A stretch of 64,000 bases of DNA from Rhipicephalus microplus (Eukaryota; Arthropoda; Arachnida; Ixodida; Ixodidae). Made by a program: the position numbers and the translations under genes. The notes beneath the pieces are model-generated. The model saw only the letters and a list, made by a program, of their open reading frames with translations. It had not been told where the DNA came from and did no database searches. Positions 6,141 through 12,999 of this stretch are shown here, one piece after another; position 1 is the stretch's first letter, and each line of letters starts with the position of its first letter. The stretch covers positions 255,241,592-255,305,591 of the forward strand of contig NC_134710.1 of the NCBI RefSeq assembly GCF_043290135.1, in the 5' to 3' direction.

Positions 6141-6173
6141 ATCGCGCGAAAAATGGACCATTTGCGGAAAAGC
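6141..6173 (+). repeat. left terminal inverted repeat
   Basis: ATCGCGCGAAAAA followed by GGACCATTTGCGGAAAAGC matches the reverse complement of the right end, where ATCGCGCTAAAAA and TGACCATTTGCGGAAAAGC are separated by an extra 24 or so bases. A second shared block, TTTTGGTTGGAAA, lies further inside both ends. Confidence 0.7.
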
Positions 6174-6338
6174 GAGCGCCACCTGCCGTCTAAACAGGGA
6201 AGCAGCGCTCGCGCTTTTGGTTGGAAAGGCATTCGTGAACTAACATGTGCTAGGCAGCGTTCGGCGGCTCGCGTGCGCTTGTTTTATTGATTTACTGTTG
6301 TTTCTTTGCCGGAAACGTGCGCTGCTTACGGAAACAAC

Positions 6339-9155
6339 ATGATAGAAGAAGAAAACATCCCGTTTGCGTTTGTGGAAACGGGATGGAGCGAGGATTTTTC
6401 GCGTTGCAGCCTGAGCAACAACGACGTGTGGCGGTACCTACACTCCGCTACTTCGACCGTTCGCCAGGCTCATCGCGGCTGGTCCTTCAAGGAAGAAGGA
6501 TACGTCAAACACTTGAAGTTGAACCTCCAAACATCTGATGACGAACTAGGTCTGGTGAGAGCGGCGTGCGCACCGTCCATGAAGTCCGGCGTGTATGTAA
6601 CAACGGCATGGTTCGTCGTGGCTACCGGTCGCATCGTTGGAGCGCACTGCGACTGTGTTGCTGGGTGAGATATTTTGATTTTACTAGCGTCTGTAGTGCA
6701 AATCACCGATTGCCGAAAATGTGTGTAAACAAATGTTGCGCCTATGCGCTTGCGAGTGTAATGGGAGCATGCAGTTCCCTTATCGGAACATTACGTTCTC
6801 TTCATAGGACAGGAGTTTACCCCAGTGCTTATACCTGCTGCAGCTCCCGCTTTTGTGATTATAAACGACCCGTGCTACTATATCAATCATGGTTTGCGCT
6901 TATACATCGAAGCGCAGCCTCGCGCACTAATGGCAGCTTTTTTTGCGAACCGTTACAATGTACGGATATACGCGAGACTGTGTGCTGCCGTGGTACACAT
7001 TGTTGCATTCACAAGATCACGTCTATCGAGTACTTTACCTCATTGCGGTGCTACCTAAAAAGCTCGATGTTGCAAGACGCGGGCTTAGCGTCTGTAAATA
7101 CATGTTCGAGGTTGTCCGTTGATTTTGTGAACAACAGTTTTTTTTTTCTTTCAGACTTAGTGAAACCTGCCAACATGTAGCAGGCCTGCTGTTTAGTGCT
7201 GCCGCCAGAGCTGAACATGCACCGTCCTGCACGGACGTACCCTGCAAGTGGATAGTCCCTGCTGAAGGTATTACTCCACCAATGCATGTCCTTAACGATC
7301 CTGTGTTGCCCATCTTGCCACTAAGAACTTCGAGTTTCAGCTAAGTATATACCTACAAAGTACCCTGTGCAAGCATATTATGATCGCGATATATTTTAAT
7401 GGCACAAAAGCAGCTCAGCCATACAGTGCCGAGCACAAAGCATATTGCATGACACAGTGCAGGTCAAATACGAGTTCGAAGGGTAGTAGGTTTTAGCATG
7501 TTAGTTAATCATGGTTGCAGAGAATACATAGCGCAGTGTAAACGCAGGACAGCGCTTGTCCTGGTACTACCCGTCTCGTGTATTTCATACTACAATGGAG
7601 AGCGCTTTCAGAAACCTTTTAACAGCCGGGAATCCAAGCATAATAAATGATTGGAGACGCAACTTGCACTCCAGGATTCGTGTAAGCAGTGGATGTTCAA
7701 ACCAGTAAATTACCGCTATTGTGAACATGACGTTGCGTTCACATACCATTATGTGTCATTCACAAAATATGCATAGAGAAACAGGCTCGCAGCGTTGCAT
7801 TTTCATGACTGCTTGCTCAGTCATGCCAGTTTATTAATAAACAGTGTTACATCATTTACACACCACAAAGCACAGTACACGAACAAACACACTTCCTCAT
7901 GTGTTGAACAGCCATGCTTGTGCACGTGCATATGCTCCCTTTCTCAACACAAATGTACTTATCACTCACATGTGTGCTCTCTTTAGCAGCATAACTGAAG
8001 TACCCTATTTTCTGTTTACTTACAGCAAAGAAACCAGTGGCAAGAAAGCCTCTGGGTGAAATCAGATTCCAAAAGTATTTCATAAACAAGCCTACACGTG
8101 GGAAACGGAAGCGCGATTATGACCCCTGTGCTGATGGCCCACTTCCTAGTCCACATGCCATTCAGTCACTGAGGGATAAGCTGGCGACCGCCTGTCCCGA
8201 TCTGCATGCTCTGCGATACATGTGCCACGATAAAGCCAAGCCAAAGCCACCATGCAACATAAAGAAGCCCATAGAGGACAGCGATGACCTCTGGAGCGAG
8301 GCTGCAGCAACTGAGGTACAATCGTACATGAAAACAATGAAGCCACTAAGCCAGACAGAGAGGGATCTGATATGCCACCAAACAGTCGGCCAAGCATCTA
8401 ACAAGAAGTGGCATGCAGAACAGGTTGGACGGCTAACAGCATCGATGTTTAAAAGGATCTGCCGGTGTACAAAACCGGACAGTTTGCTAAAGGCATTACT
8501 GTACCCTTGGGACAGAGCCACTTCCGAAGCAATCGTATATGGCAGACAGCACGAAGCAGATGCCGTAGCTGCTTATGTGAAACTGTTGCAGGCCAGAGAC
8601 TCGAGCGTGGCAGTCCGGGAAACTGGACTTCACGTCCACTGCCAGTACCCCTTCTTAGCTGCTTCACCAGACAGAATTGTTGTTGTAGATGGAAAAGAAG
8701 GCCTACTAGAAGTGAAATGCCCTTTTTCAAAAAAAGGGATAACGTGTGAGGACGCCTGCAGTGACAGAAACTTCTGCTGCAGACTCACCGAAGAAGGTGC
8801 GGAGCTGAAGCGGGACCACGCCTATTTCTATCAGGTGCAAGGCCAGATGGCAGTAACGGGCCATAACTGGTGCGATTTTGTCATATGGACTGAGGGAAAC
8901 GCACCAGGAGACCCCCCACATCTCCATGTTGAAAGGATAGAGTTCTGCGAAAAATTCTGGGCTCAGGAAGTACTGCCAGGACTCTTGCACTTCACTAAGC
9001 ATGCACTTGTACCCGAAATCTTGACACGGCGTGTCAAAAGGCTTGGGCGGCTTTACACGTCTGAAACATACGTGTCTTTCAAAAAATTCAAGGCTGGATT
9101 TTATGTCTGCACGCGTCTAGATGGCCTAAGCATCAAAATAAAAAAGTTGAAGTAA
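6339..9155 (+). CDS. SWIM zinc-finger + YqaJ-type nuclease, three exons
   Basis: Exons 6339-6664, 7155-7267 and 8026-9155 join in phase across GT/AG introns (donors GTGAGA and GTATTA, acceptors TTTCTTTCAG and TTACTTACAG) to give 522 residues. The SWIM motif C104-x-C106-x7-C114-x-H116 spans the first splice junction, so the splice is needed to make the domain. The C-terminal half is an alkaline-exonuclease/YqaJ fold: GRQHE (E323), SPD (D362), LEVK (E375, K377) and YFYQVQGQM (Q416-Q420), all key residues present. Known YqaJ/lambda-exonuclease relatives process DNA ends; a role for this protein in transposition is inferred from its position beside the transposase. Start chosen as the first in-frame ATG. 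Confidence 0.85.
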
Positions 9156-9769
9156 GACGCCTCACTTTATTTATAATCGCTCTCTTCTGGGGAGAAACAG
9201 TCTCATGCTTTTTTTTTTTTCAGTTAACTTCTCAAGGAGTGCACTGCAAAACTCTGTGAAATTCATGGCAATCGTGGCATAATCATGTGTAGACTGTTCA
9301 GCTATACTTGTGAAACCAATGCATGGCTTTTATAGTCTGAAAGTAACTAAGTAACAAAGGCTTATTGTGACTTATGTAAGATGGGACAGTGTAACACAGG
9401 CAAACAACCTGTTTCGTTATTTGTGACTTAGAGTAAGGCAAATGGGGCTTGACGTGGCTTCTGAAAGCTGTCGTGGAAAGCGCGAGATAAATTTCAACTA
9501 TATGGGGCTTCAGTAGCGTGGGTCTATTCAGCACAAAGGTGAATATAGCTACTGTGATATAACAAGATTGATTGAAAAATGTTTCATAGTTACATTTATT
9601 GGTTACAGCAAGTTTGGTAAAACATTCAAAATGGCACATCATTCCAAAAACAGCTGACTTCTGTTACTGCCTTGGCTGCAGCCACCAAATCATTTCCTAA
9701 CTCTAGCCAGCTCAGGCCAATTTCAAACTTGGCTTCCTTTTGAAAACTATGCTCGTGCTCTTGCAAATC
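9156..9769. other. convergent 3' ends of the two transposon genes
   Basis: This 614-base spacer separates the two stop codons. A minus-strand AATAAA (9595-9600) lies about 170 bases beyond the transposase stop and is a plausible polyadenylation signal. No extra ORF with a recognisable domain is seen. Confidence 0.6.
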
Positions 9770-12700: not shown

Positions 12701-12798
12701 TCGGCACGTAGCCTCGCGGACGGGAACCTGTAGAAATGCGTGCTTCCTTTCTCAGTAAAATAATTCGTGCAGCCGTAGGCCACACAGTGCGCTGGCAT
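9770..12798 (-). CDS. THAP-domain DDE_4 transposase, six exons
   Basis: Exons in transcript order are 12798-12597, 12535-12419, 11596-11528, 11384-11304, 11149-11069 and 10848-9770. Every junction is GT/AG and phase-consistent, giving 542 residues without a stop. Residues 1-84 are a THAP domain: C5, C10, C61 and H64, completed in exon 2 by NHPDFVPSVF. Residues 107-183 are an acidic linker from three short exons. Residues about 201-236 form a coiled coil after a CRCQAC cluster. The catalytic region has D375 (LVLDATEVRI), D450 (AIMVDKGF) and E496 (HVERAIARAK), the DDE_4 pattern of PIF/Harbinger and ISL2EU transposases. GGSSSDKAIL precedes the second Asp. Likely function: DNA binding and cut-and-paste of this element. 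Confidence 0.88.
11069..11384 (-). repeat. tandemly duplicated exon-intron units in the transposase gene
   Basis: The two 81-base exons 11304-11384 and 11069-11149 are paralogous (both begin E-N and end E-N-G, both contain an acidic centre and an LQ..EN tail). A third, shorter relative is 11528-11596. The sequence after each donor is also shared: the minus strand carries TTTGTGTGCACTTTGCAGAG or close variants after each exon, so whole exon-intron units were duplicated. All three exons share the same phase, so copy number can change without breaking the frame. Confidence 0.75.
11700..11870. repeat. dispersed repeat fragment inside transposase intron 2
   Basis: GAGGGGTTCAAACCCCCGAAA followed by an alternating TATATATTACACGCACACAT segment looks like a common low-complexity tick repeat rather than transposon sequence. 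It lies within the intron between exons 2 and 3. The family name is not known to me. Confidence 0.35.
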
Positions 12799-12943
12799 TT
12801 CTGTACGCTGCTTAAGCGAGGCGACTTAGTTCAGTGACGGCACAGAGATGCACGAGTGATGGCCGGCCCGGCTCGTGTTTTCCAACCAAAACCAAAGCGC
12901 CCATAGAGGGTGCCAGCTGCGCCGTTACCGCGCATGCGCAGAA

Positions 12944-12999
12944 GCTTTTCCGCAAATGGTCAATTTCTTTGCGACTCAGGCTTTGCTTTTTAGCGCGAT
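12944..12999 (-). repeat. right terminal inverted repeat
   Basis: The reverse complement of the left repeat: GCTTTTCCGCAAATGGTCAA at 12944-12963 and TAGCGCGAT at 12991-12999. The intervening bases contain GTCGCAAAG-type repeats not present on the left. Confidence 0.7.

What the first reader, a model, noticed from the sequence alone, without database searches (positions are those of the whole stretch)
6141..12998. Apparently intact two-gene ISL2EU-like transposon with a SWIM-YqaJ nuclease partner
Both spliced genes read open and keep the catalytic residues (E323, D362, E375, K377 in the nuclease; D375, D450, E496 in the transposase). A lambda-exonuclease-like enzyme encoded beside a DDE transposase suggests end processing or homology-directed repair linked to transposition. 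The SWIM finger fused at its N-terminus could direct DNA or protein binding. Such pairs are rarely intact and the nuclease's role in transposition is, as far as I know, untested. The copy could be active or recently so.
Basis: partly seen in the sequence, partly recalled or inferred. Interest (0 to 1): 0.8.

Follow-up and report, generated by a model that had tools for sequence, protein, structure and literature searches.

The report
Young two-gene tick DNA transposon
This is a recently mobile "jumping gene" of the cattle tick, carrying its own DNA-cutting transposase and a partner DNA-trimming enzyme; elements of this kind are known, but its left tip is unusually scrambled from copy to copy, which gives a handle on what the untested partner enzyme does.

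Summary
Window 6155-12962 (6808 bp) is a complete ISL2EU transposon with AT target duplications and two convergent, spliced, open genes: a 522-aa protein with a SWIM-type motif and a YqaJ/lambda-exonuclease domain, and a 542-aa THAP/HTH/DDE transposase. Seven other full-length copies are 98.2-99.9% identical to the window's; three of the eight keep both genes open. Of 33 copies with the family's left end, 25 are internally deleted. ISL2EU elements with this gene pair are described (PMC4482050), which calls the second gene's function unknown. So this is a new member of a known kind. Unexpected: the outer left terminus is hypervariable (18 of 33 copies non-canonical, 10 types) while the right end is nearly constant (5 of 34). 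Thirteen altered copies keep exactly nine bases between the inner repeat and an intact AT. In an older related MITE family 16 of 19 left ends are canonical. I read this as fixed-distance cutting plus damage to the left end of long copies; a part for the nuclease is possible but unproven.

The parts
6153..6154 (.). left target-site duplication AT (target A|AT|T)
   Evidence: AT next to both ends at exact register in 26 of 33 copies; paralogous empty site, 74-76% identical and gap-free across the junction, for copy L015
6155..6173 (+). left terminal inverted repeat; outer nine bases GGACCATTT are one of 11 types seen in the family
   Evidence: inverted repeat I4; copy comparison
6339..6664 (+). 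nuclease gene exon 1, ends inside the SWIM-type motif (C104, C106)
7155..7267 (+). nuclease gene exon 2, holds C114 and H116 of the SWIM-type motif
   Evidence: conserved in 20 aligned proteins
8026..9155 (+). nuclease gene exon 3, YqaJ/lambda-exonuclease domain with E323, D362, E375, K377
   Evidence: Pfam; fold match of the Amblyomma relative to LHK-Exo and lambda exonuclease
9770..10848 (-). transposase gene exon 6: HTH and DDE domain (D375, D450, E496)
11069..11149 (-). transposase exon 5, one of three related small exons coding an acidic linker
   Evidence: (D1)
11304..11384 (-). transposase exon 4, related to exons 3 and 5
   Evidence: (D1)
11528..11596 (-). transposase exon 3, related to exons 4 and 5
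   Evidence: (D1)
12419..12535 (-). transposase exon 2 (end of THAP domain)
12597..12798 (-). transposase exon 1 (start codon and THAP zinc finger)
12944..12962 (+). right terminal inverted repeat, ends ...AAATGGTCA; outer nine bases the same in 29 of 34 right ends
12963..12964 (.). right target-site duplication AT

Best explanation
A young autonomous ISL2EU (PHIS superfamily) cut-and-paste transposon of Rhipicephalus microplus. Shown: complete element, both genes open, AT duplication in an A|AT|T target, near-identical copies with the same ends, 25 internally deleted copies. Inferred from the family: the THAP and HTH domains of the transposase bind the terminal repeats and its DDE site cuts and joins the ends into AATT. 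Inferred, about 45%: the SWIM-YqaJ protein, a lambda-type exonuclease that by analogy degrades 5' ends of double-strand breaks, resects the broken donor site so that it is repaired from a homologous copy, which restores the element and raises copy number; interrupted repair leaves the internally deleted copies. Inferred from the ends: the transposase cuts a fixed nine bases outside the inner repeat GCGGAAAAGC whatever the sequence there, and the left end of long copies is often cut alone and rejoined with errors, so altered left tips arise and are then carried to new sites.
For: Domains. Seven other full-length copies, 98.2-99.9% to the window copy, at most 1.94% apart from one another; three of eight with both genes open. 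TSD AT both sides in 26 of 33 copies. Empty site for L015, gap-free across the junction. Catalytic and SWIM-motif residues kept from ticks to molluscs: E323, D362, K377, C114, H116 invariant and E375, C104, C106 at 90% or more in 20 sequences. Best fold matches of the Amblyomma relative's model are LHK-Exo and lambda exonuclease. The best nuclease and transposase relatives lie on contigs of the same length in Amblyomma americanum, Dermacentor silvarum and, at 7101 bases, Ixodes pacificus. Of the 33 copies with a family left end, 25 are internally deleted; read by eye from BLAST coordinates, 6 of 14 distinct simple junctions overlap by 4-11 bases and 2 carry 21-28 extra bases (two complex copies, L071 and L078, set aside), as interrupted gap repair would leave. 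Left-end pattern.
Against: No transcript or activity data. Polymorphism among the eight full copies shows no purifying selection on either gene (nuclease 61 nonsynonymous to 17 synonymous, transposase 64 to 17): expected of mostly dead copies, but no support for function. In a 29-protein set that includes truncated models only H116 of the four SWIM-motif residues stays at 90% or more. The YqaJ domain is less conserved than the DDE domain in 4 of 4 tick pairs. Internal deletions occur in DNA transposons without any nuclease gene (recalled). Only 4 of 33 copies begin with the GG said to be usual for ISL2EU. The fixed-distance and single-end-cut steps rest on sequence patterns; copies are related, so the tests count copies and not independent events; and three deletion derivatives with left parts of 777-978 bases (L067, L071, L075) have canonical tips, so some long ancestors were not altered.
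Confidence: 0.82

Rival explanations
1. The nuclease trims the transposon's own ends during excision or integration, and the hypervariable left tip is its signature: tips are resected, refilled and joined with errors.
For: Left outer nine bases differ from TGACCATTT in 18 of 33 copies (10 types), right in 5 of 34 (4 of 27, 1 of 7; Fisher p 0.0008). The eight full copies and L054 are altered in 9 of 9, the other derivatives in 9 of 24 (p 0.0014). MITE family 16 of 19 canonical (p 0.008 against the family).
Against: Thirteen altered copies keep the nine-base length exactly and an intact AT beside it, which random trimming and filling would not do. The same nuclease would be expected to touch the right end too. 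Nothing ties the pattern to the nuclease rather than to transposase cutting.
Confidence: 0.15
2. The nuclease has no part in the cut-and-paste reaction: it serves regulation, replication timing or defence against host silencing, or is selected for some other step of the element's life.
For: Short derivatives without either intact gene have moved with canonical ends and TSDs, so it is not needed in cis; PMC4482050 states that the function is unknown and that a link to transposition is unclear.
Against: Supply in trans is equally compatible. The catalytic residues are kept in relatives, and a second transposase class, Pfam 'Mutator-like' PF20700, carries a YqaJ domain in the same protein in ticks, insects, a mussel and a coral, which points to a DNA-end role.
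Confidence: 0.3
3. The left-tip variation is ordinary point mutation plus descent of a few old variants.
For: TCGCC (5 copies), GGACC (4) and tips ending ACATT (5) are shared by several copies, and the left-end tree is poorly resolved. Tips were compared in a fixed register, so a one-base shift counts as several departures.
Against: 44 of 297 outer cells depart from the canonical base, none in the 14 positions just inside; no other 9-column window in the next 308 columns exceeds 18 departures with gaps counted (8 without), mean 4.0. The older MITEs are less variable at the same place.
Confidence: 0.2
4. The two genes are unrelated host genes that happen to lie between inverted repeats.
For: None found.
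Against: Eight full-length copies with the same gene pair and ends at different sites on five contigs.
Confidence: 0.01

Closest known systems
ISL2EU group of the PHIS superfamily (Han et al. 2015, PMC4482050; parts 1-3 of 4 read)
   Same: THAP-HTH-DDE transposase plus a separate YqaJ gene, AT duplications in A|AT|T, short terminal inverted repeats, animals only
   Different: 6808 bp against an average of about 4840 bp; commonest tip TGACC rather than GG; SWIM-type finger and the three related linker exons are not mentioned in the parts read; left tip hypervariable
ISL2EU of teleost fish (PMC9179366, passages only)
   Same: same two-gene layout; transcription reported in fish
   Different: host; the passages seen deal with distribution and transcription
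KolobokE and other nuclease-bearing Kolobok lineages (PMC9587614, passages only)
   Same: DDE transposase joined with a lambda-exonuclease-like nuclease
   Different: [quoted passage not shown] That the PF20700-YqaJ proteins are KolobokE is my inference
Lambda exonuclease and LHK-Exo (PDB 1avq, 3syy)
   Same: nuclease fold and family
   Different: phage or bacterial; no SWIM-type finger or transposase partner (recalled)

Membership tests
ISL2EU (PHIS) | DDE_Tnp_4 transposase with HTH and THAP | tested here: met
   DDE_Tnp_4 4.9e-47, HTH_Tnp_4 5.9e-9, THAP 5.4e-12
ISL2EU (PHIS) | second gene with YqaJ exonuclease domain | tested here: met
   PF09588 1.5e-15
ISL2EU (PHIS) | AT target duplication in A|AT|T | tested here: met
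   AT both sides at exact register in 26 of 33 copies; left missing there in 5, right in 2; empty site for L015
ISL2EU (PHIS) | terminal repeat usually starting GG | tested here: inconclusive
   window copy GGACC at left, TGACC at right; GG at left in 4 of 33 copies. The source says 'usually'
ISL2EU (PHIS) | DDE domain falls in the ISL2EU clade | not tested
   no reference transposase set was aligned
YqaJ / lambda exonuclease family | profile match, catalytic residues and fold | tested here: met
   fold of the Amblyomma relative
SWIM zinc finger | CxCxnCxH motif (motif recalled) | tested here: met
   residues 104-116, conserved in 20 aligned proteins
SWIM zinc finger | Pfam SWIM profile match | tested here: inconclusive
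   no match for the window protein up to E 1; 5 of 20 aligned proteins, best E 0.011
Active transposon | transposition observed | not testable with these tools
   no strain comparison, RNA or assay at hand

The most novel reading that the evidence does not exclude
ISL2EU elements rewrite one end as they move: the transposase measures nine bases from the inner repeat instead of reading the tip, and the element-encoded SWIM-YqaJ nuclease processes the left end of long copies when the two ends are not held together, so that active lineages acquire new left tips without losing mobility.
Probability: 0.15. Interest if true: 0.7.

Novelty: new member of a known kind. Interest (0 to 1): 0.42.

Why it matters
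PMC4482050 states that the function of the second gene of ISL2EU, and whether it bears on transposition, is unknown. This element offers three open copies with fixed ends, a natural set of non-autonomous substrates and 11 natural left tips, so that both the nuclease question and the tip question can be put to a direct test. The tip asymmetry, if it recurs in other ISL2EU families, would say how the two ends are handled during transposition.

Tried and rejected
Unrelated host loci: rejected by the copies. A four-base AATT duplication in older copies, suggested by four of the first eight copies: dropped once 33 copies showed TGACCATTT to be the commonest left tip. Donor flank carried along as the source of the tips: not tested formally. 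A viral origin of the whole nuclease: in 28 loci from viral contigs the matched residues lie within 255-483, none in the SWIM part (the search patterns were taken from the YqaJ part). Purifying selection within the copies: none seen. Codon-level selection between ticks: not done, no DNA of the relatives. A YqaJ gene beside the Mutator-like fragment at 37902: with three PF20700-YqaJ proteins as queries the only window hits were in the nuclease gene itself. Census by the right end: requests not answered.

Dropped or special rows: L114, the second of two places with one mismatch in the left inner repeat, has outer bases that do not align and is left out of the left-end counts. L055 has a right end only. 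L060-L066 are older relatives outside the 33; among them L061, L063, L065, L066 have the canonical left tip, L062 is shifted by one base, L060 and L064 differ. L068 and L076 have the same flanks on both sides and are probably one insertion counted twice; both are canonical, so the pair works against the asymmetry. L063 and L065 also share flanks. For the MITE control I took 19 of the 99 two-mismatch places, from the top of a list that showed 66 of them, passing over one already fetched (L061) and one of differing sequence.
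Full report
What is there. Window 6155-12962 is a 6808-bp transposon with AT on both sides. Two genes face each other. The plus-strand gene has three exons and codes 522 aa; the minus-strand gene has six exons and codes 542 aa. The seven introns are GT-AG in all eight full-length copies. Pfam gives YqaJ for the first and THAP, HTH_Tnp_4 and DDE_Tnp_4 for the second. Transposase exons 3, 4 and 5 are diverged copies of one exon-intron unit.

Host. The window lies on contig C11 of a 3.26-Gb genome. 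C11 is 513,293,480 bases, the contig length listed for proteins of Rhipicephalus microplus, one of which, P0121, is 98% identical to the transposase over 72% of its length.

Copies. Nuclease exon 3 finds 9 places: 8 at 98-100% and one at 73%. Transposase exon 6 finds 11: 9 at 98-100%, one partial at 97%, one at 73%. The seven other full-length copies are 98.2-99.9% identical to the window copy. L009 (the window), L010 and L011, all on C11, are 0.15-0.43% apart and have both genes open. In the other five the transposase is broken in 5 of 5 and the nuclease in 4 of 5. The 73% relative L017 is a decayed two-gene copy. The left 200 bases find 197 candidates of which 40 were scored: 33 at 94-100%, 7 at 79-82%. 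A pattern scan for the left inner repeat finds 133 places: 32 exact, 2 with one mismatch, 99 with two. The 33 copies that I counted are the 32 exact ones and one of the two with one mismatch. Eight are full-length and 25 are internally deleted. Of those 25 only L054 keeps the transposase's DDE exon, with frame damage, and it has lost nuclease exon 3. In one search L054 is grouped with the eight full copies as 'long' (9), against 24 others.

Partner protein. Relatives with the same architecture occur across ticks (best: Amblyomma americanum, 78%). In 20 aligned proteins E323, D362, K377, C114 and H116 are invariant, and E375, C104, C106 are kept in at least 90%. In a 29-protein set that includes truncated models, the catalytic residues stay at 90% or more but of the SWIM motif only H116 does. 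Of 120 listed relatives, three PF20700 proteins among them, 49 have a CxCx(4-20)CxH motif; of the 46 that are 480 aa or longer, 34 do. Some mollusc relatives carry SAP or PHD domains. The AlphaFold model of the Amblyomma relative (mean pLDDT 84.7, pTM 0.59) matches LHK-Exo and lambda exonuclease best. Domain identities to the window (SWIM region / YqaJ / DDE) are 89/77/86% with Amblyomma, 71/64/76 with D. silvarum, 51/55/68 with I. pacificus and 53/52/66 with I. hexagonus: the nuclease is conserved, but its YqaJ domain less than the DDE domain in 4 of 4 pairs.

A second association. A search with a tick protein that joins PF20700 (named Mutator-like) to YqaJ finds such fusions in ticks, insects, a mussel and a coral. 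In a tree of 136 YqaJ domains, 27 of the 33 fusion proteins given passed the filters and fall in one group with 3 others (support 0.77). PMC9587614 describes KolobokE with a lambda-exonuclease-like nuclease (passages); that these are the same is my inference.

Left-end asymmetry. The outer nine bases at the left are TGACCATTT in 15 of 33 copies and 10 other types in 18. At the right they are the same sequence in 29 of 34 (23 of 27, 6 of 7). Fisher p for copies is 0.0008. Position by position the left shows 7, 10, 9, 2, 5, 5, 5, 0, 1 departures, then none for 14 positions. No other 9-column window in 308 further columns has more than 18 with gaps counted, or 8 without, against 44; the 44 are counted in a fixed register, so shifted tips weigh more. 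The 9 long copies are altered in 9 of 9, the others in 9 of 24 (p 0.0014). Thirteen altered copies, with 7 types, still have AT exactly at the ninth base and AT at the right; the five copies whose left AT is not at that register are all altered. Of 19 left ends of the older related MITE family, out of 99 two-mismatch places, 16 are canonical (p 0.008 against the family). Against the reading: L067, L071 and L075, derivatives with long left parts, are canonical; L068 and L076 share flanks and are probably one insertion; copies are related, so these are not counts of independent events.

Reading. A transposase that measures nine bases from the inner repeat explains the constant spacing. Frequent cutting of the left end alone in long copies, with faulty rejoining, would explain why long copies are altered and short ones mostly not. 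The nuclease may act there, or at the donor gap; nothing here separates these. The junctions of the deleted copies (overlaps of 4-11 bases at 6 of 14 distinct simple junctions, 21-28 extra bases at 2; read by eye from the BLAST coordinates, which can overshoot by a base or two; L071 and L078 set aside as complex) fit interrupted gap repair.

Against what is known. PMC4482050 (parts 1-3 of 4 read) describes ISL2EU by the features found here and says that the function of the second gene is unknown. I saw no report of left-tip hypervariability in the parts and passages read; the listings of searches show no title on it, but most of those papers were not opened. For SWIM fingers on these nucleases, one search held no paper with all terms and the four titles of one search are on other subjects. 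The library lacks most subscription papers.

Verdict. The element is real, complete and young; the class is known; the nuclease question is open and this family makes it testable. The tip asymmetry is the part that a specialist may not expect.

Noticed in passing
window 57812-61314 (-): Degraded Ty3/Gypsy-type retrotransposon pieces: aspartic protease, reverse transcriptase with RNase H, and integrase on separate frames.
   Followed up: no
window 37902-38486 (+): Fragment of a PF20700 'Mutator-like' transposase; three PF20700-YqaJ proteins gave no hit there.
   Followed up: partly
window 32175-32414, 46648-46892, 50799-51035: About 240-bp dispersed repeat, 89-99% identical to a stretch in the left flank of copy L016; two of the three Rfam tRNA hits fall in it, which suggests a tRNA-derived SINE.
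   Followed up: no
window 5007-5128 and 5564-5700: Long inverted repeat with tandem sub-repeats just left of the element, perhaps another small transposon.
   Followed up: no
window about 4743-4870 (+): A short open stretch that by eye resembles the start of a THAP finger (frame 4660-4962); not tested with a profile.
   Followed up: no
L061-L063, L065, L066, L095-L113: Older MITE family of roughly 340 bp with the same terminal repeat; up to 99 places in the genome by a two-mismatch pattern.
   Followed up: partly
protein P0001 against P0003, P0004: The closest named full-length nuclease relative is from Amblyomma (78%), while R. sanguineus and Dermacentor silvarum proteins are 57-59%; different old subfamilies or horizontal transfer.
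   Followed up: no
L054 (G000:C3:150490800-150500700): Copy that lost nuclease exon 3 but keeps all transposase exons, with frame damage.
   Followed up: partly
L068 and L076; L063 and L065: Pairs of copies with the same flanks on both sides, probably duplicated assembly or segmental copies of one insertion.
   Followed up: no
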